DNA of 64,000 nt, taken from Mariannaea sp. PMI_226 (Eukaryota; Ascomycota; Sordariomycetes; Hypocreales; Nectriaceae). The translations under genes were made by a program, and so were the position numbers. Below are positions 16,630-51,894 of the stretch, piece after piece. The DNA lies in NCBI GenBank assembly GCA_024336345.1, contig JANFOG010000020.1, positions 310,001 through 374,000 on the forward strand. Reading direction: 5' to 3'. Numbering within the stretch: the first letter of the stretch is position 1; each line of letters opens with the position of its first letter. The notes below the pieces were generated by a model. That model was given only the letters and a program-made list of their open reading frames with translations. It had not been told where the DNA came from and searched no databases.

Positions 16630-17379
16630 ATGAATCTTGGCTTTAATCCACCTGAGATCGTATTAACCGTGACGCCAGAAAGGAAGTATTCGCGCCCTGC
16701 GGTAGAGTTTTCGGTTACGCTACGTCTTTCGAGAAGGCCACAAGGAATTACACAGCTGCGATTTCCTCAAGCTTTACTTTGGGGGGAGAAAAGGCACTCC
16801 ATGCCTGCTCATTGCTCCTCTGATACTCTTCGACTACAGGTTTCACTCAGTCGCGCCAGCCACAGCGAAAATATAAAGTATGAGGCAAGCACGTTTAAAA
16901 TTTGTGACGTATGCAAAAAACGTGAGGAGAGGCGTGCAAACCGTGGACGACAACAAACCATTACTGACAGAGTCCTTGTTTTGAACACTGCCGTGACTCA
17001 GCCATGGCAGAATTGCTCACCATCGCATGATACTTCTAACGGATCGTTATTTGTAAAGTTTAAAGCACGCATTTTATGCGAATGTAGGCACCACAGCGAA
17101 AGCCTTGGATTCAATCTAAATTGTAAGCTTATTGACTACAATGGTGCTGTAATTGCCAGAGGCCGTTCCTTCCCAATCATGATTAAGGATAGTGCATTTC
17201 CACGCTCTCGTATTAGGACCCATCCATTTTTACGCGTTCTTGAGCCTCAACCAAAGAATCATATGAGAGATGTCGACAGGAAAATGCTCTGGAGCTTGAC
17301 TCATTTAAAGTACTGGAAGCCTTCAAACTTAAGATGGATTGATAAGGTCCAAGATTACAGTACAGTAGAACAACAATAG
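16630..17379 (+). CDS. Stand-alone SPT23/MGA2-type DNA-binding-domain protein
   Basis: The 249-residue frame follows the order of the N-terminal domain of SPT23/MGA2, the ER-bound regulators of OLE1 desaturase. It starts with a hydrophobic Val-rich segment, then FKICDVCKKREERRANRGRQ (about residues 88-107), then VLVLNTAVTQPWQ, KARILCECRHHSESLGFN and FPIMIKDSAF. The usual family protein is over 1,000 residues with IPT, ankyrin and C-terminal membrane parts; none is present here, and a stop follows at 17377. The gene therefore looks either truncated or evolved into a soluble short regulator. The start ATG follows AGAAAT and is the first in frame. I am fairly sure of the family, not of function. 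Confidence 0.72.
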   Translation: MNLGFNPPEIVLTVTPERKYSRPAVEFSVTLRLSRRPQGITQLRFPQALLWGEKRHSMPAHCSSDTLRLQVSLSRASHSENIKYEASTFKICDVCKKREERRANRGRQQTITDRVLVLNTAVTQPWQNCSPSHDTSNGSLFVKFKARILCECRHHSESLGFNLNCKLIDYNGAVIARGRSFPIMIKDSAFPRSRIRTHPFLRVLEPQPKNHMRDVDRKMLWSLTHLKYWKPSNLRWIDKVQDYSTVEQQ

Positions 17380-18369
17380 AAGACTATCACTGAAAGGCAG
17401 ATAAGACGAGGGGCGAAGGCCTAACGCAGCTGGCTGGCATACAGAGTGAATTTCTGCACTTTTATTTCTAAATATCGCCTGCCCCCCACCCCCCGGCTTT
17501 CTTGCTTTCGGAAATATTATGATTTATCAAGCGAAATAATACTTATGTGACTAAAAAGCGAGTAGCAGCAACGACTCCGGATGCGGTTTATCACAAATTA
17601 TAAATATTTATATATATATCCGTCCGAACCAAAAGGTTCGGGTCAGTGTGATCGTCCAACCGGTTTTGTGGAGCCATAGCCAATAAAATCAAGAATAAGA
17701 TGAACAGCCCCCTGTCCATTAAGGTACAGCCAATTAAAATAAATATAAAACGAACAACCCCTCTCAAGCCCCACAGAGGCTAGTGGTTGCCAGACTCTCG
17801 GGCGATGCTTGTTGAGATCTCTGGCATAACGGATCAATGGCTATTCCGATCCATTGGTGGCTAGGATGTAGATGCCTTCTTGTCAATAGTTCTCGCTAGT
17901 TAGCGCTAGTCTTTTTCTCCTTCAATCAATACAAGATGCTCATTTTAACAATAATAATGCAAGTATTGTGGGTTTTTAGGCTAAGGGATTATAGCGTTTT
18001 TTTTATTAGGGGATACTACATCCCTATGCGCTGTCCCAATTTCCGTGAAAAAGGAGATTTACTCCCTCTTATTGGTCCGTGCTTATTGTAGATTGTAGAT
18101 CCTTTTTCAGCTGAAAAGGGACTTGGGCACGAGGGTGAGAGCATTTTGGCAATTTACGAAGTTTTCTACCACTCCATTCTTGTTGCTGGTCTTAATCTTC
18201 GATGAGCCTGTGGCAAGTCTTGCCACGCTTGCGTTTTTGCCGAGACTTCCTTCAACATTTGCATCCTGGTCGTCATCAGGTTCGATTGATTTCTGCACGT
18301 TGAGGTTCCTAGTAGTCATTGGATGAACTTTCATGGGGATGGAAAGATAATATTCCCATTGAATTCACT
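17380..18369. other. Intergenic DNA
   Basis: No gene supported. A C run is at 17481-17494 and a TA-rich stretch at 17606-17620. Overlapping antisense frames at 18107-18334 and 18123-18326 have no motif and cannot both be real. Confidence 0.45.
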
Positions 18370-22034: not shown

Positions 22035-22719
22035 ACACTTCTTCTTCTTAAATTAAGAGGTTGACAACGGCGAAATAGATGTCTCTCCAACGTCGGAATC
22101 TCCGTTGTCGCTGATAACCGACGAATCAGGGCCTAGGGAAGTCTGGGATGATGTAGCCGCGAAGGAAGCCCTAATACCTGAGCGCTGCGAAGTTATTTTT
22201 TCATAGAATAAGACTTGTTGATGCAGTAGGTGAAAATTCAGGAGCTGACACGCTTCATGTAAGGGGCACAGGCCTTATTTAATCCAGAAACGTGCTTGGA
22301 AACTAACAAATCGATTGCATTGAACAAAAGAAGAACTGAAAGCTCTCGGAGACCTGGCTAGCTTATTACATATTCAACGCTCAGGAGTTTGTGGCGAGGC
22401 CTTTATTTAGTGGTGTTATTAGCATCGGCATCAGCTGAGAGCAGATCAACGGCCCAACCGGGTTACATTTCATTAGTAAAAAGTCCTGTAAATTGGGATC
22501 TTCATAATGCCTCATATATGGGGAGAGACCTCGTATTAGTTGGATTACACAGTACTTGCACTATATTTGATATCATATTTATACGATATTTGAACGACCT
22601 TGCACCGTATTACACGGTTTCCGGTTGGACTTGCACTGCACGGTATTTTTATACCGTGCAGGCAATACGATATTGAATATGATATCGTCTTATTTACGGC
22701 CACACTATTTACTTCACTG

Positions 22720-23876
22720 GCCGCGACGCGCTCTTTGAAGACATGCTCACTTGGTGAGCTTACTATTGAGTGCCAAAACTGAAAGAATTCAGTCCATTTG
22801 TCTGTTGTTGAAGAAAGTGAGATCGAATCATCGGTAGAAGAAGTCTTAAAGGCGGGCTGACATCGGTGAAGAACAGCCTTGTTTGCATGCCAAAGACAAA
22901 GGAGTGAATGAGCAGCAGGAAAGACAACTTCGACAGCATTCATGCACGCAACGCAGCGGTCTGTTAGTATCACGGACGGCAGTCTAGCTTTGCAAGTCTC
23001 ATAAAGGGACCCCAACCTGTCCAAAGCCCAACAGAAGTCTTCCTCTGTCTCACCGCTAAGAAATGCAAACGCAATGCAGAATGAGCGTTGGCAGGCATCA
23101 ACTCCAATCATGTCCAGCAAAGGCATCCTGTATTTGTTTGTTTTGTAGGTGCAATCTAGCAGCAGCACATCGGGATAACTCTGCAGATATTCTGGCGAGC
23201 CTGGGTGTGCAAATAATACAGCAGTGACCCGTCCACTTTCATCAAATCGCATTCGATTCCAGAATCCTTCCTCGTCAAGATGATTAGCGAGCGCATGGAT
23301 GCTGCTTTGACCAGCACACATCTCTCTTCTCACTGCGGCAATGCGATTGTAGACGTCTTTTTGTGTGGCCGTAGATGCAGAATGATGCCGCAAGTATGTC
23401 CTGATGTCCCTAGGCGCGATGCCAGCATTGGCAAGATTCATAAGCAGAGTAGTGTCCTCATCATTGAATTTGCGATGGACTGGGTGAGCCGTTGAGCACT
23501 GACTTGGCTCATGATTATGCACCGAAAAACGCGGGTCTTGCCGATGTCGAAGAGTCCAGGTCTTTTTGTCGAGTGATTCCTTAGCCAACACGGAGAAAGG
23601 ACAGTTGGTTCCACGACTTGTCGTCTTGCGTTTTCGCTCTGCGGTCTCACTTGGCGGTCGGCAAGATCGATCGCACGCGCACGTGACAGTCCGTTTCCCG
23701 CTCCTCTCCTTTGTTGACTTTCCAGTTGTGAAGGCATACCCCCTCGTCACAGCCCATGCATTAATGGAGCTGAAAAGTGCATCGCGCGACGGGTAATCGG
23801 CCTCTGGAGGAAGACAGTCACTGGGAAATGATGCAGCAGACGCCAAACTATGAAGTTGGCTCGGCGCTCTACTCAT
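22720..23876 (-). pseudogene. MULE transposase, truncated copy
   Basis: Starting MSRAPSQLHS at 23876, this frame is nearly identical to the first 386 residues of the intact transposase at 48833; only a few substitutions were noticed, such as Cys for Tyr in VTCACD and Pro for Leu in SPEYL. It includes the first two catalytic Asp segments (LLLDCTYKTN and ILTDRC). The frame then runs into hAT sequence and ends there. The C-terminal SWIM-like and zinc-knuckle parts are lost. Near identity means the insertion that cut it is recent relative to the MULE expansion. Confidence 0.85.
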
Positions 23877-23981
23877 GAGTAGAATAGAGGAAGACGTGTT
23901 TGGGTGGAACAATGCAAACTTTTGTAGGCGGGGTCCCGCGAAATTCTAAAGTCGCGGGTCCCCGCGAACCTAGGCGTTGCC
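22720..23981 (-). mobile_element. MULE element, 5' half, cut by hAT
   Basis: It carries the same terminal inverted repeat as the intact element at 48719-51760 (end GGCGTTGCC at 23973-23981) and the first part of the same transposase gene. At GCGGCC (matching 49985-49990 of the intact copy) the sequence stops and the hAT end begins. The rest of the MULE, including its other terminus, is not present on the far side of the hAT element. Confidence 0.85.
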
Positions 23982-25492: not shown

Positions 25493-25687
25493 AATACCCT
25501 CAGAATATTGCATTAACAAATCCAAGGGAGGGATGGCTCTGATGTTGACTGCCTTCCGATTTACCTAGTTTTTCGGGATTAAGATGGATAAAACCATACT
25601 CCCTGAGCAAAATATTCACAAGACCGTTAACAGCTCCTTACTAAACAGCCACTGAAATCCGATGCCTATTTCCATACCTTATATATC
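25493..25687 (+). repeat. Left copy of the ~195-bp inverted repeat
   Basis: Read forward, this segment (TACCCTCAGAATATTGCATT ... CCATTTCCATACCTTATAT in part) matches the reverse complement of 37123-37317 along its whole length at roughly 85-90% identity. Long exact blocks include GACCGTTAACAGCTCCTTAC and CACTGAAATCCGATGCC. It has no coding capacity. The two copies lie just outside the P450-to-SDR gene set. Confidence 0.88.
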
Positions 25688-25840
25688 TCTATAAGGGTTG
25701 AAGTGGGGAAAGAAAATCAACTCTAGTCTAGATGTAAATACCTTTGATTACTAGAATTAAGTATCTCTTTATAATATAGTTATTTTAAGAGCTAGGTCTC
25801 TTTATAATTCTAGGAAGTCTATATCGCTCCTTTCTTAGGG

Positions 25841-27457
25841 CTACTTAGCTTCTACCCCTCCAATTATTTCCCTATATCTTGTTGTCCTCGGTCTAATTTC
25901 ATAGGAAAATTTCTTAGGTTGACTATTTACAGAAGGTGTAGGCTCAACCCGGACTTCGATTTCTACTCCTCTTTCATCAACAGCCTTCGAGATCGTGAAA
26001 CCAGCTAAGATTTTAGCAATACATATAAAGACTGTTGAGTCAGCAAGGTATCGGCCGGGGCAGAGTCTGCGTCCAAAGCCAAATACCACGGTCCTAGAAT
26101 CAGGCTCCTTACGGGGCTCCAGATACCTATCTGGATCAAACGAGTCTGGGTCCCGGTATACTTCAGGATCATGGCAGAACCACCATATAGCAGGAAGTAT
26201 ATATGCTCCTTTTGGAATAAGATAGCCATTATAGGGAATATCATCTTCTGCTTTATGAGGAACGCCCATCGGCGCGACTGCAAACCACCGATATACCTCT
26301 GTGACCAAGTTGTTCACATACGGCATATCTTTCCGATCGTCAAAAGTAGGAAGCCTATGTGCGCCAGTCACGCGGTCGATCTCTTCCTGGGCCTTGCACT
26401 GCACTTCGGGGAACATGACCATGGCCAAGATAAAACTGTTTAAGGTTGACCAAATGGTCACTGTGCCTGCAGCATTGAGTGTTGCTGCAGTCCATTTGAC
26501 ATCGTCCTCATCTTCTTGAGCAGGCTTCTTGGACTTCTGCGCAAGAAGCTTAGACACGTAAGATGGACAGTAATCGTTTTTCTCCATCTGCTGTTGAACG
26601 AAACTGTAAGGCATATTTGCCATGTCCTGGTTGGTTTTGTGCCACTGTCGAGCTTTTTCTTTGAATGCCGTTCCAGGGAAGCCGTCAGGCAAATATTTAA
26701 GGGCGGGAATAGCATCGACGAGCCAATCCATGGGCATAAGCGCAGCTAGAATATTATCCAGCATATGTCCGACAGTGAGGACCAGAGGATCAGTCCCAGT
26801 AGGTCCAACTGAATATCCGTACAAGATTTTCGCCATCAGAGCAGTTGCGAGACTGTCATACAAAGTTCTGTCAGTTTATACAAAGGCTTTGCTCCTCCAT
26901 AGTAGATCTGCAAAAGGTGGACACTAAGCTTACGTTTTCGTGTGGACAAGCGAATCTTCCGGCCGATTCAACATCCGTAGAATCAGCCGTCGCGATTCCA
27001 CTTCCTGAATATCTTGGAATTGGGTGACTTTAGTTTGTGTACCTATTTCTCGATCTATAATCTTGCGTCGACGGCGATACTTGTGGTCATAGGGTTGCAG
27101 TGGTAGAAGATTATCGTAGCCACACAAGTTGTGGCTAAACTCCAAGAGCGGCCGTGAAGAAGTGCGCAAGGACTTCTTTGCCAACAGATCATGAGTGGCT
27201 TCCCTATCATGAGTTATGATAAAGGTCTGATTCAACACGCTCATTGAAGTGATCGGACCATAAATTTCGTTGTACTTCTGCCAATGTAGAAAATCTGGAA
27301 ACTCATTGGGCGGGAGATCCGTCACATTTCCGACCATGGGCCATCGCTTAGGTCCTGGAGGAAGGCCCAGTTTCTCCTTCTTTCGTAAAAACCGTCGATA
27401 ACAGAGCAGGGCTAATATGAGCAGAATGCCCGTCTTGGTTATGAAGTACTGTGACAT
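25841..27457 (-). CDS. Cytochrome P450 monooxygenase
   Basis: Two exons, 27457-26934 and 26867-25841, with a 66-bp intron (GTAAGC...CTGACAG); the joined frame gives 516 residues, the usual microsomal length. There is an N-terminal membrane anchor (residues about 8-20), proline hinge LPPGPKRWP, an I-helix with AAGTVTIWST in place of the common AGxxT, the K-helix EVYR, the PERF-region DPDRY and the heme motif FGFGRRLCPGRYLAD with the Cys thiolate. The layout resembles fungal clan members such as O-methylsterigmatocystin oxidoreductase-like P450s in secondary metabolism. It would sit in the ER membrane and need a P450 reductase. It is divergent from the dehydrogenase gene at 28461, sharing about 1 kb of intergenic DNA. 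Confidence 0.93.
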
Positions 27458-28460
27458 GGTGTGGTGAAATATGAGAGTGCAGTGAGGACAATTAGCTACA
27501 GGAGTGGCAGTGAAGTTTGAGTCTAGAGCTAACCTAGAAGTTATTGAATAACTTCCACGGTGTTTGACCGAGGGTTTAATACGACCATTTTCAAAGGAAC
27601 ACTCTCTGCGTGGTTATGACGTATCTGTCAAGTCATCAAAAACTACGCTCGCAGTCTGGTATAGCGCCACAAGAAAGGGAGGATGGTGGGGAGCGTAAGG
27701 GAGATGCTTGTCTCGTTCGCGTTTGAAACAAATTCCTCCCTGCGTGGCTCCGCTTTGCATTTTCACTGGCTCTACTAAGGGTATGAGTGTGAATTCAAAT
27801 TCGATTTATGCATCTCGGATGTTTGTTCCACGGAGATCTGGCTTTAAGCTCCTTTCAGCAATGATGGTTGGAAACTTGGAGGCTGATGTATAAGTCCAAA
27901 GTGAAGAATAGTGCGGTGGTAGCGTCGAAATATGGCACAGATGTAATGCAAGTTATTCGTACATTCGGTAGCTCTAAAGCTTTGAGGAGTATTCTGTCTT
28001 TGAGTTCTAGACATGTCTTGTACTACTGAATGTACCGTTGACCAAGGAATTCACAACAGAATAGGGATGTTCAGATTGCTATATCAATGAGTGTCACGAT
28101 CGGTGTCGGATATGGCAGCCACGTTAGAAATGATGACATTACATACCATGGAGTACGTTTCTCGCTCAATAATCTTCTGTGGCGCGTAAGCCTTCTACCA
28201 CACACGCAATGGAATTCTGTCTACTGCCTGATGGAATGTATTGATCAAGGATAAGTCGTCGGACTGACGGCACAAGGTCGTGAAACATTATTGAGCATGT
28301 CTGGAGTCCGGAAAGGAATCTCCAAGATGTGGGTGTATGCAGTGAGGGAGAGACGGCTATAAAGTGTCACTCCATAACCTAGTGACCAAGATGGATGAAC
28401 AAAATTGAGCACACCATTCCATCTAGCAAGCTGCAAGTGAGAAAAAGTAAACCGCATACA
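27458..28460. other. Divergent intergenic region between P450 and dehydrogenase
   Basis: No gene seen. It probably holds promoters for both genes. I looked for paired zinc-cluster sites (CGG inverted repeats) and saw none convincing. Confidence 0.5.
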
Positions 28461-29661
28461 ATGACAGCAGCCCATAAATTTGAGGGATGGATTGCACAGA
28501 ATCCATCTGCAGCCGATGGCAAAATGGTCTGGGGTCCTTTCCAGCCCAAGGCTTGGGAGGAAACGGACATTGATATCAAAGTCACGCATTGCGGTGTTTG
28601 CGGTTCGGACCTGCACACCCTTCGGTCCGGCTGGGTGAGTTCGTCACTCCGCCGGATGAAAGACGAAGTTGGCATTACTAACACGAATCTCTCTTTAGTG
28701 GCAGACAGACTATCCTTGCGTTGTGGGTCATGAAATTGTTGGCATTGCCATTCGGGTTGGGTTAAATGCAGAGGGCAATATACAGCTTGGTGATTTAGTC
28801 GGTGTCGGTACGCAAGCCGACTCCTGCAGAGACTGCGATGGCCTCTGCAAACCTTGCAGGTCCAACAATGAACCTTACTGTGTCCAAGGTCCGATTAACA
28901 CATATGGCTCCAGACACCATTGTGGAGACAAGACATATGGCGGATTTGCCTTGTACCATCGTGCTGTGTCGCACTTTGTTGTCAAATTGCCTGATGGTAT
29001 AGCCCCGGAACACGCAGCACCAATGCTTTGTGCTGGTATCACGGTCTATTCACCGTTAAAGAGCTGGGGCGCCGGACCTGGTAAAAAGGTTGCTATTGCT
29101 GGTATAGGTGGTCTGGGCCATTTTGCGGTGCTTTTTGCTAGAGCAATGGGTGCTGATGAAGTTATCGGCATTTCACGAAAGGCATCTAAGCAACAAGAAG
29201 CTATCGCTCTTGGGTGCGATGATCATATTGCTACTGAAAACGGGCAAGACTGGTCTCGTCACAACGCACAGCGATTTGACCTTATCCTCTCGACAGTCTC
29301 ATCTAACGAGGTGATATTCTCATGACCAGCATAATGCCGACCTCGTTGTTAATGCTAACTCTGCGGTCATTAGATGGATTTGGGACAGCTCCTTAGCACT
29401 CTATCGTTTGATGGCACTCTTATTCAGGTCGGTCTACCTGAGAAAGCTATTCAATTGCCTGTATTTCCGCTCATGCTTGGCCGGCGCAAAATTGCTGGCT
29501 CTGCAATCGGTGGACCGAAGGAAATTAGCGAGATGTTGCAATTTGCTGTTGCTCAAAACATCAAACCGTGGGTGGAAAAGCGCCCCATGAAGGACGCCAA
29601 TCAAACGGTTCTTGACATGAGGGAAGGGAAATCCCGCTTTCGGTATGTGCTAGTGAATTGA
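28461..29661 (+). CDS. Zinc-dependent alcohol dehydrogenase, ADH6/cinnamyl type
   Basis: Three exons, 28461-28634, 28699-29310 and 29374-29661, with introns GTGAGT...CTTTAG and GTGATA...CATTAG; the joined frame is 357 residues with no break. Catalytic zinc ligands are seen in THCGVCGSDLHT and GHEIVG, the four-Cys structural zinc site in CRDCDGLCKPCRSNNEPYC, and the nucleotide fold in GIGGLGHFAVLFARAMGA. The family reduces aromatic or aliphatic aldehydes, usually with NADPH, in the cytosol. The start MTAAHKFEGWIAQ matches known family starts; an ATG 66 bases upstream would add a Lys-rich tail. Next to the P450 it may reduce or oxidise an intermediate of the same route (inference). Confidence 0.93.
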
Positions 29662-30448
29662 ATACTCCAAAGTTCGAAGCTTCGAGGAATCACCAGCGGA
29701 TAAGGATCCAAAGGATGCATTGGTAGTGACTTAATAGTGTCATTCGTAGTGTATCCAGTCGAATGTGTTTAGTTCAATACTGCCAGTCGAACGTTTTACA
29801 GCAATTGTGATCATGCCGGTTTTGCGCCAACTTGCGGGGAGTGCCAGGACAGAGCTTCATAATAAAAACACTCTTAGCCAGTCGTCGCAGAGCCGTTTCC
29901 TCCGGATTTTAACAGAATAAATTGATGGTGAATATTTACGATGAGATGACGTTTAAGCCATGATAATTTTTACTATTGCGTTGAGAGGAAACCAAAGCTG
30001 TAATGAAGGTAGCAATGCCTCAATTTTCCTGCTTCATCATTGCCATTTTAAACATGTGATCTACAAAACACATATCATCCACTCTCTTTGAGAGGAAATT
30101 CTTTTGATATACAGGGCCTTGTCTACCATCTCTATTTGAACTGTGACCTAAGGGAATTATCTGCTACTTGTGATCCGTACATAAATCTTGTAATGCCCAC
30201 TGCAATAGTGCTTAGAATTGCGACCACTTGCCCCTTGTATTCTGTCATACAGTCCAGCCGCGGCGAATCATTCTTTTACCCTATACGGTGTCTACAACCC
30301 TCCTGACTAACATATCGTTAAGCGGACGAAGTGCATCATCTATGCTGCCTTCACCTTGTATATACTTCCCAGCCGTCATATGTCTCCTCTCAGGTGCTGG
30401 CTGTTTCAAATAAGGCATAACCCGCTTTCTATGTCCTAATCGGAAGAA
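29662..30448. other. Convergent intergenic region
   Basis: This is the 3' side of both the dehydrogenase and the IDO-like gene. No motif-bearing frame was seen. Confidence 0.5.
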
Positions 30449-32003
30449 CTAAAACAAATCAGTTGAAGAAACCACTAAAATATATTTATATCGTACCTTC
30501 ATCTGCTGTACAAGCCTCTCCATCTCGTTATAAATTTCTTCATTTGTATCCTTATCAATCTTGAATCTAAATGAGTGCCTTCGAACTTGATTGCTGAACT
30601 CTCGTTGCTTAGCAGGCACGTAGCAGCTTAGTTCTTGTTCAGATAGATAGGGTTTCAAGTTGAGAAAGCTATCCAAGATCTGAAATGCCAGAACATGACT
30701 GCCAGATACTCCCTCGTACTCCATTAATTGGGCGTCTACTACTTTGCCTGCGCCCCAACCATGGAACCCTTGCGTATACTGCAACCAAACGTCCCGGGAA
30801 ACTCGTTGATGTACAAGATTTTTGTAGAAAATACTGAAAAGTTCGCGAACTAAGGCGTTGATTTTTCGAACACCGTTGGCGCATGCTTTAATCTGTCCTT
30901 GTTCGAAAGCGATAACTGCACGTACGATTTCGACATATATGGGAACAGACTAGGCATCAGAATTAATAAGATGCACAAATCCTTGGAACATCAACTTACC
31001 TTGACTTCCCAAATGTAAAATAGTAAGAAAAAATTGTGCTCGGTCGATGTGATCCTCGCTGATACGCCTATATTGGTTCTTATTATCTGACTTCCAGCTG
31101 TGTCGAAAGCCAGAAGGACATTTGCAGTGTGATTTCCGCTGTCAGCAACGCAGCCAAAAACCTTTTGCAAAGTTTGCCACGGAATCTCTAACTGGTCTGG
31201 AAATTTCACAAATCTCTCAAGTTGTGCAACTCGAACAACTGGGTTGGCCGCCCACCTGGTCCGGTCATTAGCATGATGCTGCAGGCTCTGCGTCTCACTG
31301 GAAGAATGTACCTATAAGCGTGACGAAGGTAAGCTATAATAGAATAGAGTGCGTTGAATTGTAAGCGGGGCATTATGGACCAATTCCCTTGCTCAATCGA
31401 TTTCATGATCTCTCCGACCTCTGTTAAGTCGACTTTTTCATGTAGCCTCTTTTGCATTAAGGCTCTGAACTCGTATCTCTTTTGGCGGTTGAAATCATCA
31501 CACAACGAAGGTTCTTCAACAGTGAACGAGCGAAAGAGCTCATGATATATGTTCTGGTAACACTGAAGAGACTTTGGCCACGAAACAAAACTCGCTGACG
31601 GCGGCCAGCTTCCGGCTCCATCCTGTTCGACTAGCTGAGCTAGAGCATACGCAGCTTTGTGTCTGTCCTGTAGGAGATTTAATTCAGAGATCATATGACC
31701 TACAATTCCATCTTCCATTTTGGGTTGGCTCTGGGTAAGCTTAACGCATTTTGTCATGTTCTTGGGTTTGATCTGATAAAGAATTGTAAGTATCACCATG
31801 AGGCATGTTGACACTACCAAGACAATTGCATCAATATTTGTGATCATATCGGCGTAATGCACGGAATACAATACTTTGCGTGGAATGATGTAGATGTGTT
31901 TTCTGGATTGAAATTTAGAAGGCAATCGGGAGTAGGGCGTTAGATGATAAATAACTTCCTCAGAACCCAATGGAAACACTATCCGCCATGTTTGGCTGGG
32001 CAT
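30449..32003 (-). CDS. IDO-superfamily (PrnB/DUF1864-like) heme enzyme homologue
   Basis: Three exons, 32003-31312, 31255-31000 and 30949-30449, with introns of 56 and 50 bp; frame is kept and the product is 482 residues. Diagnostic stretches are LRHAYR, WAANPVVRVAQLERFVKFP, VFGCVADSGNHTANVLLAF, QYTQGFHGWGAG, YEGVSGSHVLAFQILDSF and CYVPAKQREFS. I recall this order from fungal proteins of the indoleamine-dioxygenase/PrnB (PF08933) superfamily; PrnB rearranges chlorotryptophan in pyrrolnitrin synthesis. Substrate here is unknown. Residues about 52-72 are hydrophobic and may be a membrane anchor, which is unusual, so a start nearer MTKCVKL or MEDGIVG is also possible. It lies within the P450/dehydrogenase/regulator set. 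Confidence 0.7.
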
Positions 32004-34409
32004 GTCATGCAGATTCCTTCATGATTTCCTGATGACCGGCATGAATGCTGTAGAATAGAAATGGTATTCAGTCTAAAGCGCCAGCTTAGTCGAACATTTA
32101 CAAATTTGACTCAGCTACGTCTTGGGAAGCCTCGCTCAAGGTGGATAGAAAAAGATAGGAATGAGGGGAGAGCGCAAGACATCTTGTTGTAAAAGCCTAA
32201 CAGAAAAACGCTAGTTTACCCTGTTCTTCCGAAGACAGTAAGTATAGCCTCTTTGATTTACTAGATCCTAGTATCTGTGATGTAAGAAAGGAATTGTGAT
32301 TCTTCTCCAGAACTTTTGAAAGTATTCCTGAGACAAAGAGTGCCAATTATCGCCTACTTTCACGCAATGTCCTTTTTTTTTGAGAGAGAGAGAGAAAGAA
32401 AGAGAAGGGGGTGGGTAAGGGGATGCTGTACTTGGCGAGGTTCCAAACACTCCATTTGCGATCATCCGAACTATCAACAGGAGTCACATTTTCTCAGTAG
32501 CAGATGAAGATCGTGATAGGCTATGGCATAACATGCGTACTGATGTAGATTGATGCGTCACACAATAGTTAATTACCTAGCTGTAGCAATCCAGTCACCA
32601 CACCAGGACAAATGAGGTGTAACGTGATGCCGCTGGGTAAGACGGATGGAGAGCGCACCGGAAATTAGTGACGGAGACTATTCCAGAATAGCTGTACAAA
32701 TACTAGATGACCTTTTCCCCAAATCGCAAAGAGAGTTATGGGTACGGTGTGAGATTGGCGCATGCTATACCAGCGGTAGAGTGGCAGAAATAAGCAGAAC
32801 AGTGCTTGAAACACTAGGATTGCTCGGGGTCCAGGTTTCTCTAATAGCAATGATGATAGTAGCAGCAGCCCAGCATTGATACGTATCGAACGCCCGCAGT
32901 AGGGCAAGTGGGGCGAGCAATTATTGAGACTATATCAGATTGAAGGAAATTCGCAATGATTCCAAGCTCCCAAGGATTTAGCGTGTGGTAATAACAGTGG
33001 CACAAGATAGGTTAGGAAACGGTACCACTTCATTACAATTGGACTGTTTAAGACGACTTTCACATTGTATATCTTCCATCTACACAGGACTGTATTAGGC
33101 GGTATGATTTGTCTCAGAAGGATTGATCGACGGGCGATTGAATCACCAAGACATTCCATGAGTAGGGCCGATACGACGACATTGAATTGTTTCATCAGAT
33201 GTGGCCGAGGTATTCTCCGGAGCAAATCACCCACGTATGACTCAAAGCATCATGTACCTTACCTTGCCTTCAGACAGAAGATCATGCATGGAATGATTAT
33301 CTACTAATCGATGATTGCTTGTGTGATTGTGTTGTCGTTTAGTGGAAATACAATTGAGTATGAGGTATTCCAAACCCAGGTTTGAAGAGGATCGTAGAGT
33401 AACCGTCATAATGAAGTGGAAAATGGTATGGGCCTAACCTGAGACTGATCGACGTTTGACCTACTGTGGATGCGTGTCTAAGTAGTGTCTGGTCATTGCG
33501 ATAGCAGCGGTGTATACGGCTCTACAAGTCACTCCCAGAGATTACGGGTCATGGTGGCGATGATGAAGCCAAAAATCGTGAAAGATAGCTCAACAAGTGA
33601 TAGAGAACCTTGGATCTTGGTGATGCTGTTGATGTAGTGAGATGCGTAAATTATACCACCACAAAGAGCTCTGCAATATGCTATCACAGGATACGAAGTT
33701 ATAGCAAGTAAGACAACACAGCGATACCATCAATCAAGTTATCATTTCGCAAAACGCCTCCTATAAATTTAATGGGCTAAGCAGACAGCATGGCAAGTTC
33801 TTTCGCGCCTTGAGCTAGTATACTATCATAGTGTGGATTATGTTGCCTAACGCTCCCACAAATGGCTCGTCCATCGCGATCAACACAAAAGAATAAATCC
33901 GTGATACGCTCGCTAGCTGATCAATGTCTTAGAGTTGTATGTTTTGGAGTTATACCTTTGCATGTGTACGTCTCCCTTTTCTCCTGCTGATATCTGCGGG
34001 CTATGACGCTACTGATTACGACTATTTAGCACCTTACGTATTTGAGTATATATTGATCAGTGTATCTCAGTTGCATTTGTCCCATTTTTTCCTGTGCCAT
34101 GCCATTTTCGAGGCATAACATTCGCAAGCGTTAAATATCCGCATTCCAAAATTATCCGGCGAAATACCACACTGCAGGCGCGTCCATACCAACCCTACCA
34201 TTACTGCTGTTCCCATGGCATCATAGTTCTATAATTTCAAAGTACGTGATGAGTTAAGGTGTCTCCAAGACCCTGCCAGCAGGCCCGGGATAGCGTCCTC
34301 CGAGCAAGCTGAATCAAGTTATTTTGAATGGCGTAACCCTAAGGCGACTAAATTTATCATGCAACGTTTCTAATATGATAATAGGCAAAATTAGCTACTT
34401 GGGGGCAAA
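32004..34409. other. 2.4-kb intergenic region with GA microsatellite
   Basis: No motif-bearing frame found on either strand. A GA-rich microsatellite lies at 32380-32407. The size is unusually large for a compact cluster and could hide a lost gene or long regulatory DNA. Confidence 0.45.
32380..32407 (+). repeat. GA/GAAA microsatellite
   Basis: A run of GAGAGAGAGAGAG followed by AAAGAAAGAGAA, preceded by a T8 tract. Simple repeat. Confidence 0.8.
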
Positions 34410-36085
34410 ATGGAACAATCTCCATGTTCCAGCTCTCCCGTTGACATTCATATCCAAGCATCTTCAATGTCTGCATCACGATCCAAGACTGATTTGCGCA
34501 TCAAACCCACCTTCGACCAGACATCTAGGGAATCGCTTCTGAGTAATTTTCGTTCAATGTTGACGTACTTTCCGTTTATAACCCTGTCTCCAGAAGTGTC
34601 CATCAGAGAGCTGACTTTATCGCAACCTGTGGTACTCTTGGCTATCTTATCAGCTACTTCAAGCTTGCAGACTCCGGGTACCCGTTCTTCATACGATGCA
34701 GAATTCACAAAAGAATTGGCCATCAGATACGTTACAAATGGTGAAAGAACTTTAGAGCTGCTGCAAGGCATCCTTATTTACTGCGCTTGGTACTACACAA
34801 AAAAACATCAATGAGGGTCTGGATTGACGCTTTCTAGGTACCCTTTCCATCTGAGGCCGAAAAGCAGGCATGTGCTTCAGTATCTTCGTATGGCTACTGA
34901 CATAATTCTTGAGTTGGAACTGGATTCGTCGCCCAGGATTGCAGACCAAGGGCTGGATCTATCTGTCCTTTCTGGAGAGCAGCAACTGAGTATGAGACGC
35001 GCCTATCTAGCTTTCTTTTACTTAGCTTCAAGGTAAGTCTTGCATCACATGCTTTTAGGTATAATACTAATAGTCTGGAGCTTTGTTACTATCTGGGGAT
35101 GTGACAGAGGCATTCGAGTTTCATGGAATTCTTGGACTGCCAGAAATTGTGAGCTTCTCCAGCTTCATGGTTCGGGGGAAGGTGACCGTATTCTTGCCAC
35201 TCAGGCACGTCTAGCAGGTCTATTGCTACAAACAACAGAGATGCGCGTTGATCCTATCATGTGCCAGTCTAATGACGAAAGACGGGCTATGTTCAATCTC
35301 GTGAAATCCGAGCTGATGCAAATTGAGTCATCATTGCCCAGTGGGATTGCTTCTGCAGGTAAGATCCAGATCATTCCACAGCGTGGACCCAGGAAACTAA
35401 GTACATGTCAGTTACCATCAGACAACAAATCATATTTATCGCTACATACCTTGACATTGATACAGTCTTAAATATGCCAGAGATACCTTTCAGGCCCTCC
35501 ATATATGGTACCCACTTATCTACCGATTTAAACCGGTGTCTAGGGAGCTTGAGTACCCTATATAACGATATCATGACACTGGACGAGACACATTTCATCT
35601 GCTTCACCTTCGCGGATTGGTTACGTCCTATAATGGGAACCAGGCTGGGAATCCGGTTGTCGTGTATGATGTCAGAATATCCTGAGCATGATGATGCTTG
35701 GGGTAGATTGCAACTTAACTTGGATAAGTTTCTGTTATACATGTCTCAAGATTGCAGAGAGAAAGAGGCTTCAGTATCTCCAAATCAGATGAACATTGTG
35801 TCCGCGAGTTGCGCTATTATGCGTACAATACATCAAAAGTACCGAATGAAAGTAATGAACTTGGAGCAGAGTTCGCACGACTCAAAGCTAGCTGATTTTG
35901 GTTGTCCTATATTTGACGGTAGTTTGGATGGCTTTCTTCCACTGTGGGATGCACAGTTGAGCCCCTTACCACTGTTAACGGAGGCAAATGTTGAGGCAGC
36001 AAAAAAGCAGGAATTCCATGGCGTTTGGGATACCATTACTCTAGACTGGGCATGTCGGGAAACAGAGCGTGGTGGTCCCGATTAG
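34410..36085 (+). CDS. Fungal-specific transcription factor lacking a zinc cluster
   Basis: Four exons, 34410-34789, 34838-35032, 35108-35358 and 35412-36085, with introns of 48, 75 and 53 bp (all GT...AG); the joined frame is 499 residues. The middle homology region is shown by LTLSQPVVLLAILSATSS, LLQGILIYCAWYPFHLRPKS, AYLAFFYLAS, GDRILATQARLAGLL and, after them, long alpha-helical segments. The N terminus has only a short Ser-rich stretch and no CxxCxxxxxxC zinc cluster, and none was found in the 400 bases upstream. It may act as a co-regulator, or its DNA-binding exon may be lost. By position it is the likely regulator of the P450/dehydrogenase/IDO-like genes. Confidence 0.85.
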
Positions 36086-36610
36086 TATCAGAAGAAATCA
36101 ATAGGAATGCGTACCTGCGAGTAATGAATGGGTTGAATACCAACATCAAGGGAAACATGCACTTCTCCACAATATGCAGATTGCTCACTCTCTGAACTGA
36201 TTTGACTCAGGGGCCCGCGACTTTCGGAAGGCTGCTCGGCTTATGGCTCCATGTTTCATAAGCGCTCGAGTTGGGGGATTATGATCGTGAGCAAGTCGTA
36301 ATGAAAAAGCAAGAATAAAAGCCACCGCATATGGAGTGCTCAGACCGCTAGTTTTTGCGGAAAAGGAGCGAAGTATAAAGGGTAGGGGAGGGCGTGCTTT
36401 CGCGGCAGGGAGACGGGAGAGCAACGCCGCTAAGTTATATCAAGTCGCTGGGAGGTCCTAATCACTCCTTTATCAGTACCTTCGTGGCCCCTCGGCAGTA
36501 AAGCCGTTAGCAGATACTTTTTTTTGCATATAATAGCCCATATCAGCATATGACACTAGGCGTTTTACAACATAAAATGCGACTAGAGGCATACCGTACC
36601 AATCTCAACC
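36086..36610. other. Intergenic DNA before the SDR fragment
   Basis: No supported gene. The last 100 bases carry a T run and CATATAATAG as a possible promoter for the frame at 36611. Confidence 0.45.
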
Positions 36611-36985
36611 ATGGAGTCCCACTACTTCGATGCCTATCCAGCACTTGCGATAACACTGGAGAACGTTTCTTTGCGGGGGAAATCCGTTCTAATTACTGGC
36701 GGCGGCTCTGGAATAGGGTTTGAAATTGTACGATCCTTTATTTCTCGCAACATCTCCAACGTTATCCTCGTTGGTCGTACTGCTTCAAAACTCGAAAATG
36801 CTGCCTCCTCTCTTACTACAGGCAGTACTAAAATCATCTATAAAATAGCAGACATCTCGTCTAAGAACGACGTTGAGCGCATGTTCAGCTCCCTAGAAAC
36901 ATCTCCTGACTTTTTAATTAATAATGCCGCATATTTACCCGATTTGGAGCCTTTCGTGGACGCCGACCTCCAAGGGTGTGCTCAA
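36611..36985 (+). pseudogene. Short-chain dehydrogenase/reductase, truncated
   Basis: The frame starts MESHYFDAYPALAITLENVS and has the NAD(P)-binding motif VLITGGGSGIGFEIV (about residues 26-40), VGRTASKLE and FLINNAAYLPDLEP with the structural NNA. It ends abruptly at about residue 125 and is replaced by repetitive AACGTCAA/TTGAATGGATTGA sequence. The catalytic YxxxK and substrate part are absent, so no active enzyme is expected. The breakpoint lies about 140 bases inside the right copy of the inverted repeat, so the insertion or rearrangement that brought the repeat probably removed the 3' half. Confidence 0.85.
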
Positions 36986-37112
36986 CTCAACGTATTTCAA
37001 TATGTTGAATGGATTGACGATCAACGTCAACTCAACGTCAATCAATATCGAATATGGATTACATAAACTTCAATCCATTTTGAGTTATCATTGATTGAAT
37101 GGATTGAAGGTG
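36986..37112. repeat. Small inverted-repeat-rich insertion
   Basis: Contains ATTGACG...CGTCAAT and a hairpin CTTCAATCCATT (about 37069)/AATGGATTGAAG (about 37098), plus repeats of TTGAATGGATTGA. It separates the SDR breakpoint from the ~195-bp repeat. It resembles a MITE end, but no complete element with target duplication could be defined. Confidence 0.6.
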
Positions 37113-37122
37113 GTGGATTTAG

Positions 37123-37317
37123 ATATAAGGTATGGAAATAGGCATCGGATTTCAGTGGCTGTTCAGTAAGGAGCTGTTAACGGTCTTGTGAATATTTCGC
37201 TCAGAAAGTATGGTCTTATCCATCTTACACTCTAAAAACTAGGTACATGGGAAGGCAGTCAACATTAGGGCCATACCTACCTGAGATTTATCAATGCAAT
37301 ATTCTGAGGGTATTTTA
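37123..37317 (-). repeat. Right copy of the ~195-bp inverted repeat
   Basis: Its reverse complement matches 25493-25687 from end to end, including CACTGAAATCCGATGCC and GACCGTTAACAGCTCCTTAC. Differences are mostly single-base changes. It lies just beyond the truncated SDR gene. Confidence 0.88.
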
Positions 37318-38659
37318 TTCGTGTTTCAGAGCTCGTCGTATTAGCAGGTTCGTGATGATGGTCCATGCGTTGGGACGACAATGACAGCGAGCGTTACATC
37401 CTGGTCAACAAAGCGTTACACCCCTGCTCGCAAACATGGGCTGCAACCAATCACTTCGGGTCTTGACGGTAACACTGTTGCGGAGCCAACCCAAGAAGGT
37501 CTTCGTGGTAACGCACCCCATCTCTACACACAAACCGTAGTCTATCACCTGCTAACTTATGAACCCATCAAGATGACTCCTCTTCCACCAAGCTCATCAC
37601 AACCTCGACAGCACATGCATTAGTTAGTTGTCGTAGATTCATCGGAATCTCAATGGGATATGGAAGGTAGAGAGTCAACAATCGAGGGTCTTGGCGCCCA
37701 GGCGAATCAAATGAATGCTTCAGATCACACTTGTCTATATGCAACTGATGATCCTAGGTGGACCCAAACATGTATCAAGCCAGGAACAAGGTTTTTCATC
37801 CGTCGATCCTGCTCTCATACGGCGTCAGCAGGTGCGACTTCGAGTACAGCGATACAGAGAAAGACAGCATCGATTGCGAATAGGCGCAGCTACTTTACCG
37901 TCCCGCCAGACTTCCATGGTCACGGTGATGACATTTTTGACGTGCAAAGAATTTCGCGCTTGATGGCGTATTGCAGTCGAATCTGTCGAGTCTCGGAGGC
38001 GAAAACATTGGATACGAGGCAGACTGGTCACCACCCATTCCAGGCGAAGACGAAACTTCATTGAACCTGGCCCAGATCTGAATGAGCTAGAACCACTACA
38101 AAGGATTGATACAGTTCCAACTGGTTGCCATCAAACTTGTTCAGGCCGCAATCGTTTCATCCAAGCAGCGAAGGGTGAAGGACATGAAGCTAGGATCGGA
38201 TCAATTGATACCTTAATCGCAGTCCATGATCGCATTTTTTGAATCGTTCTTGAGCCTTGAGTGCGACTGTAGGTCCAACTGCCGAAGTTTATTCACGTTG
38301 AATTGATGATCAGCTGATATGGAAACAGGTACTACCCCGCCAGAGCTTGACGAACCTTCAGAGGTCCACAGCCTCGTTGAAAGAACACAGCATCTGCAGT
38401 CTATACTCCCGAGTTTGATAACCATTTTTGGGGAGACAGTCTCCTATGATCCCAGCACATACTTTTCGCAATGGAAGCGTCTTCTCTCCGAATCGCCAGC
38501 GGAGCCCTGTCGTTTCGAAAAGCGCCGGACATAATGCCAATGTTAAAGGAGGTTTACTGTAGCCCGAAATGTTCGGTTCTACTACTGACCCCTTGGCCTT
38601 TACTAATATATAAGAAATGGTTCCATTGAGGTGCACCGCATAGAGTACATTTTGCGTGA
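37318..38659. other. Degenerate stretch with short unassigned frames
   Basis: Frames of 60-134 codons on both strands (for example 37660-38064) show switching coding character but no motif I recognise. This may be a decayed gene. No function is given. Confidence 0.4.
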
Positions 38660-39400
38660 TTATCGATTCTTTTGCTGCTCCGAGGGAATGAAGGCATTGA
38701 TGTGCGTGCTATCTACAGCGCCGATACAACCCTGAAAGGAACACAGCCCGGGCTTTAGAGTCTCCTCAGCGAAAAAGGCGTTATCTGGCTGCTTTATGAA
38801 GGCAAAAAATATGTGACGAAAAGCCTCAGCTGTGAAATGCACAACCGACGATACAGTGCTCTGTGAGATACCAAAACAATACGCCGTATTTTGCTGTGAG
38901 GAGCCTTGATTAATAACATATAGGAAGATCATAACCTTCTGCTGTACGGACTGGTATTTCGTGCTTTTCATGAGGTTATTCTGATGAAGCCAGGCGATGA
39001 GGGCATCAAAATCCGGCCTTTTCATGCGAAATATCTCCTCAAAGGCATGACTGCTGCCGTGGAGGAACATATCTGCCCGTTGCAACGCTGAAGCTGGCCC
39101 GCCGGGGTTGATGACAGCCCTGGGGTCATGCCCACCAATTTCCGGTCTGTGAGATTGACTTCGCGTTGATATAAAGCTTCCAAAGACTAACTGTATGACA
39201 ATAGCATCTTTGATATCCTCCATCAAGTCTTCGAGCCAGTTATTTCCGTTATACGACCCCTTTCTTGGTGTTGACGGCCGTGATGTTGTCTGACGGTCCC
39301 ACCAGCTATATATTTGGCCAGCCTTTGTGACTTTGTCAAGAGACTGTGCCTTGGTCCAGGCAGGTACAAAAAAACTGCCAAATTTACTGCCAAAAGTCAC
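38660..39400 (-). pseudogene. PIF/Harbinger-type transposase, 3'-truncated
   Basis: The frame has RPDFDALIAWLHQNNLMKS, a helix-turn-helix region FGISQSTVSSVVH (about residues 176-188), and CIGAVDSTHINAF with the first Asp of the DDE_Tnp_4 catalytic triad (about 227-239). It ends directly after this at KNR, so the second Asp and the Glu are absent. The frame opens without a clear exon structure upstream. Terminal repeats were not found. A dead fragment of a PIF/Harbinger element, whose relatives insert at TWA or TTA targets. Confidence 0.78.
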
Positions 39401-39697
39401 AAATTTGACGTATTTTCGTGGCTTTTTTTACCTATTCAGGTACTCGGTCAGAAACGGCAGAAAAAGTAACCTGAAGTTACCTTGCATAACTTCCTGTCGC
39501 GCCGCTAGACAAGCATTCGCCTTGTTTACTAGCAATTTACTATGCTACGAGGGGGAAGGCTCGTATTTTTAGCGACAAAATCATTTTGCGTCACAATTAG
39601 TGACTCGAGCCGATCAGGGCATTAAATGCAAAAATAATAGTCAAGTCCATTAGTAGCGAAGTCAGGCATATAGTTGTCATGCTGTAGCTCGTTTGTG

Positions 39698-48707: not shown

Positions 48708-48832
48708 GCGCCTGGGCGGGCAACACCTAGGTTCGCGGGGACCCGCGACTTTAGAATTTCGCGGGACCCCGCCTACAAAAGTTTGCATTGTTCTTACTGG
48801 CTGCCACCCAAACGTCTTCCTCTATTCTACTC

Positions 48833-51559
48833 ATGAGTAGAGCCATGAGCCAACTTCATAGTTTGGCGTCTGCTGCATCATTTCCCAGTGACTGTCTTCC
48901 TCCAGAGGCCGATTACCCGTCGCGCGATGCACTTTTCAGCTCCATTAATGCATGGGCTGTGACGAGGGGGTATGCCTTCACAACTGGAAAGTCAACAAAG
49001 GAGAGGAGCGGGAAACGGACTGTCACGTACGCGTGCGATCGATCTTGCCGACCGCCAAGTGAGACCGCAGAGCGAAAACGCAAGACGACAAGTCGTGGAA
49101 CCAACTGTCCTTTCTCCGTTTTGGCTAAGGAATCACTCGACAAAAAGACCTGGACTCTTCGACATCGGCAAGACCCGCGTTTTTCGGTGCATAATCATGA
49201 GCCAAGTCAGTGCTCAACGGCTCACCCAGTCCATCGCAAATTCAATGATGAGGACACTACTCTGCTTATGAATCTTGCCAACGCTGGCATCGCGCCTAGG
49301 GACATCAGGACATACTTGCGGCATCATTCTGCATCTACGGCCACACAAAAAGACGTCTACAATCGCATTGCCGCAGTGAGAAGAGAGATGTGTGCTGGTC
49401 AAAGCAGCATCCATGCGCTCGCTAATCATCTTGACGAGGAAGGATTCTGGAATCGAATGCGATTTGATGAAAGTGGACGGGTCACTGCTGTATTATTTGC
49501 ACACCCAGGCTCGCTAGAATATCTGCAGAGTTATCCCGATGTGCTGCTGCTAGATTGCACCTACAAAACAAACAAATACAGGATGCCTTTGCTGGACATG
49601 ATTGGAGTTGATGCCTGCCAACGCTCATTCTGCATTGCGTTTGCATTTCTTAGCGGTGAGACAGAGGAAGACTTCTGTTGGGCTTTGGACAGGTTGGGGT
49701 CCCTTTATGAGACTTGCAAAGCTAGACTGCCGTCCGTGATACTAACAGACCGCTGCGTTGCGTGCATGAATGCTGTCGAAGTTGTCTTTCCTGCTGCTCA
49801 TTCACTCCTTTGTCTTTGGCATGCAAACAAGGCTGTTCTTCACCGATGTCAGCCCGCCTTTAAGACTTCTTCTACCGATGATACGATCTCACTTTCTTCA
49901 ACAACAGACAAATGGACTGAATTCTTTCAGTTTTGGCACTCAATAGTAAGCTCACCAAGTGAGCATGTCTTCAAAGAGCGCGTCGCGGCCTTCGAGAGGA
50001 AGTACGTCCCAAATCACGTCGGACAAGTTGCATACATCCAAACCCAATGGCTTGATCTGTACAAAGAGAGGCTGGTGAAGGCGTGGGTTGATCAATACTC
50101 TCATTTCGGGAATATCGCCACATCGAGAGTAGAGGGTATCCATGCGCTTCTTAAGGCTCATCTGAGGAAGTCAACTCTAGACCTATTCGAAGCCTGGAGG
50201 GCAATTAAGCATGCTGTACTCAATCAGCTATCGGAACTCACGTCCAATCAAGCGAAACAGCAGATCAGAACACCAATCGAGCTCTCAGGGTCGCTGTATG
50301 GTGCTGTTCGTGGCTGGGTTTCTCACGAAGCTCTCAGAAAAGTGGAGGAACAACGCAAGCTGCTCGATAAGACATCACCTCCGCCTCCGCTTATTTGCAC
50401 TGGGGTTTTCACAAAGTCATGGGGTCTTCCATGTGTCCATACGATCAAATCACTAATAGAAAGCCATGGCGTTCTTTCACTGGAGCATTTCCATACTCAT
50501 TGGCACTTGAGACGAAAAGGTTCGCCACAGCACTTACTCGAGCCGTTGCAACGCGGAGATTTAGCGAACCACACATCTCGCGTCCCTCAGCAGAGCACGA
50601 GAAGAGAGCCTAGTTTGTTTGAGACGATGGAGCCGACGAGGGCCCCTCCAACTTGCAGCAGATGCCACCAAATCGGGCACACAAGAGCTGGGAACAACTG
50701 CCCTCTACGGCATGACGAGCTCCTGCAGCGGCTAGCCGCTCCTGCCGACCTACTGGGAACGGAGGTGAATAAAATGGATATTACTTCAGGTAACAACCCG
50801 GGTAAGGTCCTATCGAGTCTAGCATTGGCTCCAAGAGAAGCCGGACTGCGACACGGTATTGCACCGAAAGCGGTGCCATCCTTACCGACAGGAACAGAGA
50901 AAAGCACTGAAAGCAGACGAAGCAATGAACTCACGTTAGAGGTAGAATTGCCACCTGTCAGCGAGTCTAACTCCACGGAGAATGTGGAAGAGGACCAGGT
51001 GCCGGAGGCAGGAGAACCATCATATTCGCCAGGTGTTGCAATTATACCGCCGTCGTTGGGACCTTGTCCAGAGGACACAGCTCATCCATCGCCTTCAATG
51101 CTAGAGGAGTCAACATCGCAAACCTCGAGATACGACTCGCCTGCAGCTATATATGCTCGCTATATTGCCGCAAGGGAGGCGTGGTATGCGGCACAGCCCA
51201 AAGGGTGCATCAAGACTAATCAAATGTATCGTAAGGCAAACGGGCTACCTTTGCGATATGACAAACAAAGTTATGCCTGGTGTTTAGATTATAAACAAAT
51301 GTCAAGACGTTGTGCTTCGCCATCGGGTATAAGGGATTGGACAAAGGAAGAAATGATGGCGTATCTAGACTGGAGCAAGCAGGAAGATGATCGGGTTGAG
51401 GCTAAGGTAGCTGCAGAAATACGTGATGATCCTGCAGCACAGAAAAGAAGAGGCGTGAAGCACGTTTGGAGGAGCATAGAGAAGGATATGGCAGAGCAGA
51501 AGGCACTGTATTTGCTTGATGGACAGGAACACGTCGAGGACTGTATAGTTGTCGAATAA
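48833..51559 (+). CDS. MULE transposase
   Basis: 908 residues from the ATG at 48833 (MSRAMSQLHS); an earlier TTG in frame was not used. In order: a FAR1/WRKY-type zinc-binding N terminus with VTYACDRSC and HNHEPS (about residues 40-120); the MULE catalytic domain with LLLDCTYKTN (first Asp, about 240) and VILTDRC (second Asp, about 304); LVKAWVDQY and IATSRVEGIHALLKAH; a SWIM-like CTGVFTKSWGLPCVHT (about 522); a zinc knuckle CSRCHQIGHTRAGNNC (about 608); and a C-terminal domain with RYDSPAAIYARYIAAREAWY and WTKEEMMAYLDW. It would cut and join the terminal repeats in the nucleus. No stops: a probably functional gene. Confidence 0.93.
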   Translation: MSRAMSQLHSLASAASFPSDCLPPEADYPSRDALFSSINAWAVTRGYAFTTGKSTKERSGKRTVTYACDRSCRPPSETAERKRKTTSRGTNCPFSVLAKESLDKKTWTLRHRQDPRFSVHNHEPSQCSTAHPVHRKFNDEDTTLLMNLANAGIAPRDIRTYLRHHSASTATQKDVYNRIAAVRREMCAGQSSIHALANHLDEEGFWNRMRFDESGRVTAVLFAHPGSLEYLQSYPDVLLLDCTYKTNKYRMPLLDMIGVDACQRSFCIAFAFLSGETEEDFCWALDRLGSLYETCKARLPSVILTDRCVACMNAVEVVFPAAHSLLCLWHANKAVLHRCQPAFKTSSTDDTISLSSTTDKWTEFFQFWHSIVSSPSEHVFKERVAAFERKYVPNHVGQVAYIQTQWLDLYKERLVKAWVDQYSHFGNIATSRVEGIHALLKAHLRKSTLDLFEAWRAIKHAVLNQLSELTSNQAKQQIRTPIELSGSLYGAVRGWVSHEALRKVEEQRKLLDKTSPPPPLICTGVFTKSWGLPCVHTIKSLIESHGVLSLEHFHTHWHLRRKGSPQHLLEPLQRGDLANHTSRVPQQSTRREPSLFETMEPTRAPPTCSRCHQIGHTRAGNNCPLRHDELLQRLAAPADLLGTEVNKMDITSGNNPGKVLSSLALAPREAGLRHGIAPKAVPSLPTGTEKSTESRRSNELTLEVELPPVSESNSTENVEEDQVPEAGEPSYSPGVAIIPPSLGPCPEDTAHPSPSMLEESTSQTSRYDSPAAIYARYIAAREAWYAAQPKGCIKTNQMYRKANGLPLRYDKQSYAWCLDYKQMSRRCASPSGIRDWTKEEMMAYLDWSKQEDDRVEAKVAAEIRDDPAAQKRRGVKHVWRSIEKDMAEQKALYLLDGQEHVEDCIVVE

Positions 51560-51586
51560 ACTAGGGGCTGAGAATTATGCTCTGAT

Positions 51587-51630
51587 GATGATTGATTGAT
51601 TGATTTATTCCTACACGGTTGCAGCCACGT
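51587..51630 (-). mobile_element. 44-bp retroposed scrap with 13-bp target duplication
   Basis: Flanked by ATTATGCTCTGAT at 51574-51586 and 51631-51643. On the minus strand the insert reads GTGGCTGCAACCGTGTAGG followed by AATAAATC and AATC units, exactly the 3' terminus of the elements at 42150 and 44821. It lies just after the MULE stop codon and inside the MULE. An extreme 5' truncation. Confidence 0.88.
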
Positions 51631-51894
51631 ATTATGCTCTGATACAATGTCGGTAACTCCACTTGGGTCCATCTAGCGTTATTCATACTGCACAAAACTT
51701 TTGTAGGCGGGGTCCCGCGAAATTCTAAAGTCGCGGGTCCCCGCGAACCTAGGCGTTGCCGCCTGGGCGCGCCCACTGACTAATCACCCCAGAATGCCTC
51801 CTCCCATTGGTGCGTGTGAGACTTTTTTGCTTCACGTCATGCTCGTAACAACTTATTATGAATAGAAACAAAAAAAAAAAAAAGTAAATTGTAG

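What the first reader, a model, noticed from the sequence alone, without database searches (positions are those of the whole stretch)
25493..37317. Possible metabolic gene cluster bracketed by inverted ~195-bp repeats
P450, zinc alcohol dehydrogenase, an IDO/PrnB-like enzyme, a transcription factor and a cut SDR occupy 25.8-37.0 kb, and copies of one repeat in opposite orientation lie at 25493-25687 and 37123-37317. The cluster has no PKS, NRPS or terpene backbone gene, so the IDO/PrnB-like enzyme would be the candidate core acting perhaps on an aromatic amino acid. The repeats may be ends of a captured or moved segment.
Basis: partly seen in the sequence, partly recalled or inferred. Interest (0 to 1): 0.78.

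Follow-up and report, generated by a model that had tools for sequence, protein, structure and literature searches.

The report
Broken fungal enzyme cluster around IDO
A small group of fungal enzyme genes, centred on an unusual relative of the tryptophan-splitting enzyme IDO, sits among damaged transposons; some of its genes look broken, and the repeats on either side look like local repeat debris and not like the ends of a moved segment.

Summary
The window lies on contig C13 of Mariannaea sp. PMI_226 (Nectriaceae). Repeats and genes are there as described. The repeat (192-195 bp, 90% identical, inverted) has five copies found genome-wide, all on C13. In the bracketing pair the shared sharp ends face inward, the outer ends are ragged and unequal, and no target duplication is seen, so the pair does not behave like ends of a moved block. 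P450, zinc ADH and IDO can be read in full. The SDR is cut after about 121 of 291 residues by a transposon end. The transcription-factor gene shows no zinc cluster, which its paralog has. The P450 has Val where 51 of 51 relatives have the I-helix acid. No NRPS condensation or PKS ketosynthase match lies on C13. Most interesting is the IDO: a divergent fungal subfamily (57 proteins collected, 39 of 56 with an N-terminal membrane-helix-like stretch) that keeps the haem-ligand histidine but has Gln/Ser where IDO1 has Arg231. Two of its four closest relatives are annotated as fused to a methyltransferase. Best reading: a decaying remnant of an IDO-centred oxidative pathway acting on an indole other than free tryptophan. 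Substrate and function are inferred.

The parts
25493..25686 (-). Repeat copy C (C13-local repeat, five copies); sharp shared end on the right, facing the cluster; cut to about 195 bp on its outer side
25844..27457 (-). Cytochrome P450, OrdA/CLM2-like (P0026, 511 aa as annotated); Val in place of the I-helix Asp/Glu
28461..29661 (+). Zinc-dependent alcohol dehydrogenase, ADH6/CAD type, spliced by eye (357 aa)
30284..31847 (-). Divergent IDO-family gene (P0001, annotated start 31694); an in-frame ATG at 31847 adds an N-terminal membrane helix
34410..36085 (+). Regulatory part of a fungal zinc-cluster-type transcription factor; no zinc-cluster sequence found upstream
36611..36973 (+). SDR fragment, about the first 121 of 291 residues
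36970..37122 (+). Truncated end of dispersed transposon X, which interrupts the SDR; other copies on C11, C9 and C13
37123..38211 (+). Repeat copy D; first 192 bp pair with copy C; resembles C13:303847-305422 in two blocks
22719..23981 (-). Truncated MULE copy, inverted relative to the full one
48719..51760 (+). Full-length MULE with terminal inverted repeats, 934-aa ORF and 9-bp target duplication

Best explanation
This is the remnant of a small oxidative gene cluster in a repeat-rich part of contig C13. Its core was probably a membrane-anchored, divergent IDO-family haem protein that opens the 2,3 bond of an indole other than free tryptophan (shown: IDO fold by model, conserved haem-ligand histidine, changed substrate-pocket residues; inferred: reaction and substrate). 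The P450, ADH and SDR would have oxidised and reduced the product (inferred), and in sister fungi a methyltransferase takes part (inferred from two fused gene models). Transposon X cut the SDR, the regulator shows no DNA-binding domain, and the P450 lacks its I-helix acid, so the pathway here is probably no longer complete. The 195-bp inverted repeats are fragments of a low-copy, C13-local repeat and play no part in moving the cluster.
Against: P450 haem motif and ExxR are intact, and it departs at only 2 of 53 highly conserved columns; the IDO departs at 1 of 39, so these two may still work. A zinc cluster split by an intron could be missed. No expression data. The Arg231 alignment is not firm: HMMER places it on the Gln for IDO2 but differently for IDO1, and hhalign gaps the region. 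Gene order in the sister fungi could not be read; P450 hits in the same species as IDO hits show no sign of adjacency. The canonical PF01231 search of the genome missed the C13 gene.
Confidence: 0.55

Rival explanations
1. A working backbone-free cluster: IDO, P450 and ADH are functional, the SDR is dispensable and an outside regulator drives it; the product is a small tryptophan or kynurenine derivative.
For: IDO, P450 and ADH read through; IDO keeps 38 of 39 highly conserved positions. Fungal IDOs are known to serve secondary metabolism (PMC7448278, passages).
Against: SDR cut, regulator without zinc cluster, P450 acid lost, pocket Arg replaced. The known IDO clusters have an NRPS; none is on C13.
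Confidence: 0.25
2. The genes are neighbours by chance in a repeat-rich region and never formed one pathway.
For: P450 nearest relatives are 44-52% identical and none shows adjacency to an IDO hit. The closest SDR paralogs are at C13:483175 and on C5. 28.4 kb of 194 kb is covered by local repeats.
Against: Redox enzymes of tailoring type plus a regulator-like gene within 11 kb is the usual make-up of fungal clusters (general knowledge).
Confidence: 0.17
3. The block between the two repeats was captured or moved as a unit by an element with these repeats as ends.
For: 90% inverted repeats lie close outside the first and last gene; tight bracketing of a random interval is rare (0.0017).
Against: Sharp ends face inward, outer ends are unequal, no target duplication, transposon X lies between SDR and repeat, five copies on the contig; an inverted pair this close is expected in 0.41 of trials.
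Confidence: 0.03

Closest known systems
Fungal secondary-metabolism IDOs: TzpB (terreazepine, Aspergillus terreus) and NanC (nanangelenin), PMC7448278
   Same: An extra IDO beside the ordinary ones, next to tailoring genes; Mariannaea has three other IDO genes.
   Different: TzpB is reported 41-45% identical to IdoA/IdoB and works with an NRPS. The C13 protein is far more divergent, has no NRPS on its contig, and its subfamily often has a membrane helix and an altered pocket.
Human IDO1 / IDO2
   Different: Arg231 position Gln/Ser, Phe226 position Trp in 51 of 53 aligned members; the C-terminal GTGGT stretch of the canonical fungal IDOs is a MTAGKS-like motif here.
OrdA/CLM2-type fungal P450s
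   Same: 44-52% identity, haem motif and ExxR.
   Different: No acid in the I-helix.

Membership tests
Indoleamine 2,3-dioxygenase family (PF01231) | Pfam match over the curated cut-off | tested here: met
   P0001 36.2 bits against 26; 5 of 6 subfamily members tested are over the cut-off, P0002 is under (22.4). My own 386-aa splice without the last exon gave no hit.
Indoleamine 2,3-dioxygenase family (PF01231) | IDO fold | tested here: met
Indoleamine 2,3-dioxygenase family (PF01231) | Proximal haem-ligand histidine | tested here: met
   His in 48 of 49 members aligned there; 8 of 57 have a gap.
Tryptophan-cleaving IDO (functional class) | Substrate-pocket Arg231 and Phe226 of IDO1 | tested here: not met
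   Gln 47 / Ser 6 of 53 and Trp 51 / Phe 2 of 53; the alignment here is not firm. Role of the residues: passages of PMC6072487.
Tryptophan-cleaving IDO (functional class) | Turns L-tryptophan into N-formylkynurenine | not testable with these tools
   needs enzyme assay
PrnB family | Pfam PrnB match | tested here: not met
   No PrnB hit at E 1 for P0001 and five relatives.
Classical fungal biosynthetic gene cluster | Backbone gene (NRPS or PKS) | tested here: not met
   0 of 64 condensation and 0 of 46 ketosynthase matches on C13. Terpene and DMAT synthases not tested.
Classical fungal biosynthetic gene cluster | Neighbouring tailoring genes | tested here: met
   P450, ADH, IDO and SDR fragment within 11.2 kb.
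Classical fungal biosynthetic gene cluster | Same neighbourhood in relatives, co-expression | not testable with these tools
   no fungal genome collection or expression data at hand
Zinc-cluster transcription factor | Zn2Cys6 sequence | tested here: not met
   None on the + strand of 32000-34900; present in the C19 paralog.
Mobile segment bounded by terminal inverted repeats | Sharp outer ends with target duplication | tested here: not met
   Sharp ends face inward, outer ends unequal, no duplication seen by eye.

The most novel reading that the evidence does not exclude
The IDO here stands for an undescribed branch of fungal haem enzymes: membrane-anchored, without the amino-acid-binding arginine, paired in some fungi with a methyltransferase, and oxidising an indole (or other aromatic) intermediate of a pathway without NRPS or PKS.
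Probability: 0.35. Interest if true: 0.6.

Novelty: new variant of a known kind. Interest (0 to 1): 0.4.

Why it matters
IDO enzymes are known for splitting free tryptophan. A widespread fungal branch with a changed substrate pocket and a membrane anchor would mean that this fold was turned to other chemistry, and that pathways built on it may be passed over by cluster finders that look for a backbone gene. The survey that counted 118 IDO clusters in 1,037 genomes used antiSMASH 4 clusters (PMC7448278).

Tried and rejected
Rejected: PrnB (no Pfam hit). Repeats as transposon ends. Repeat as part of a known coding element: four short ORFs, three in 37345-38239 and one at 38361-38708, gave no Pfam hit, so the nature of the repeat stays unknown. 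Known RNA: no Rfam match in the window. Chromosome ends: no TTAGGGx4 anywhere in the assembly, so I cannot say whether C13 is an accessory chromosome. Methyltransferase in Mariannaea: best matches 31% on C10 and C20, none on C13 at E 1e-10. Papers: (six terms, 14 papers), and one search were meant to find a description of this IDO branch; from the listings none shows one, but most were seen as listing only.

Full report
Where it is. The annotated protein P0001 (BGZ63DRAFT_368305, Mariannaea sp. PMI_226) sits on a contig of 488,399 bases, the length of C13, on which the window occupies 310001-374000. The fungus is in Nectriaceae.

The repeats. The inverted pair is real: 192 nt, 90% complementary, 11,438 nt apart. 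The genome search found five copies and scored five of five candidates; all lie on C13, at about 210.8, 263.3, 303.9, 335.5 and 347.1 kb, in orientations + - + - +. C13 is 1.16% of the assembly, so random placement of the other four there has a chance near 2e-8: the repeat spread locally. Copies share one rather sharp end (TATATAAGGTATGG); copies C and E look alike for some 30 further bases, so even that is not a firm terminus. The other ends differ: C stops after about 195 bp, A after about 287, E after about 125, while B and D stay alike in two blocks over 1.1 kb. In the bracketing pair C and D the sharp ends face the cluster and the unequal ends face outward, the reverse of what ends of a moved block should look like, and I saw no target duplication. 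Simulating five copies in the same span, a neighbouring inverted pair this close appears in 0.41 of trials, any close pair in 0.72. A stricter count goes the other way: only 0.0017 of random 11-kb intervals are tightly bracketed by one inverted pair, on a list that contains this pair. In the 194 kb examined there are 42 repeat pairs of 120 bp or more, 27 inverted.

The genes. P450 25844-27457 (-): OrdA/CLM2-like, nearest relatives 44-52% identical among 51 hits. ADH 28461-29661 (+): best solved relative yeast 1piw, E 4.3e-75; my splicing was not checked against an annotation. IDO 30284-31847 (-): the annotated start is 31694, but an in-frame ATG at 31847 adds a strongly hydrophobic stretch (2.66 on the Kyte-Doolittle scale). 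Regulator 34410-36085 (+): no Pfam hit; 13 matches in the genome including itself, best paralog on C19, which has CEACRATKIKC upstream, a pattern absent from the + strand of 32000-34900. SDR 36611-36973 (+): 121 residues, cut by transposon X, whose end starts at 36970-36972 and which recurs on C11, C9 and C13. A tblastn alignment with the paralogs runs to residue 137, some 36 bases into X; I take that as chance extension. No rest of the SDR is found in C13:190001-404000.

Signs of decay. SDR cut, regulator without zinc cluster, P450 with Val where 51 of 51 relatives have Asp (41) or Glu (10) in the I-helix. Against decay: P450 departs at 2 of 53 highly conserved columns and keeps its haem motif; IDO departs at 1 of 39.

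No backbone. The genome has 64 condensation and 46 ketosynthase matches, none on C13. Terpene and DMAT synthases were not searched.

The IDO branch. Two searches gave 57 proteins (25; 41, 32 of them new), in Ascomycota, Schizophyllum, Mycena and a chytrid. PF01231 is matched over the cut-off by 5 of 6 tested. The structure model (22 sequences, pLDDT 81.5, pTM 0.82) matches IDO1/IDO2 in all 50 rows shown by each aligner. Profile comparison with three canonical IDOs of the same genome gives 97% probability. Haem-ligand His: 48 of 49. Arg231 position: Gln 47, Ser 6 of 53; Phe226 position: Trp 51, Phe 2 of 53. The placement rests on the HMMER alignment with IDO2; IDO1 rows and hhalign place that stretch differently. 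RHAYRW is near-invariant (56 of 57 at each checked position). 39 of 56 members have a membrane-helix-like stretch before the GAGSWPP motif; the 17 others include models that look cut short, such as P0001 itself. Mariannaea has three other IDO genes, on C25 (two) and C1; that PF01231 search did not report the C13 gene, exon by exon. In the tree of 52 rows P0001 falls in a clade of five (100/99) with Torrubiella, Cladobotryum, Paramyrothecium and Pseudogymnoascus; the last two are annotated as IDO plus methyltransferase, either true fusions or merged neighbours.

Precedent. Fungal IDOs in secondary metabolism are known: terreazepine and nanangelenin, and 118 of about 38,000 clusters in 1,037 genomes contain an IDO (PMC7448278, outline and passages). 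Related listings, abstracts' beginnings only: PMC9598734, PMC11942691. Residue roles in IDO1: passages of PMC6072487. Strain: passages of PMC9258550.

Verdict. Observation confirmed; the moved-segment reading not supported; a candidate cluster that is probably in decay; the IDO branch is the part worth following.

Noticed in passing
48719-51760: Full-length MULE transposon: inverted ends beginning GGCAAC, identical 9-bp flanks GCCTGGGCG at 48710-48718 and 51761-51769, and a 934-aa open frame with a MULE transposase domain. A truncated inverted copy lies at 22719-23981.
   Followed up: partly
15300-17619 (C13:325300-327619): 98-99% identical to C13:256445-258674, a recent duplication on the same contig.
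   Followed up: no
C13:287174-293884 (L022, L023): Reading frames that look like fumarylacetoacetase, maleylacetoacetate isomerase, homogentisate dioxygenase and a transporter, by reading only.
   Followed up: no
1140-1889 and C13:315923-316828, C13:323338-324309: Several phosphotransferase-like (APH) genes; one confirmed by Pfam PF01636, the others by reading only.
   Followed up: partly
L047 (C13:478400-488399), last bases: The contig ends inside a frame that reads like a RecQ-type helicase of the kind found near chromosome ends, by reading only; no TTAGGG repeats were found in the assembly.
   Followed up: no
38361-39427: Transposase-like frames with a weak HTH_Tnp_4 match under its cut-off.
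   Followed up: no
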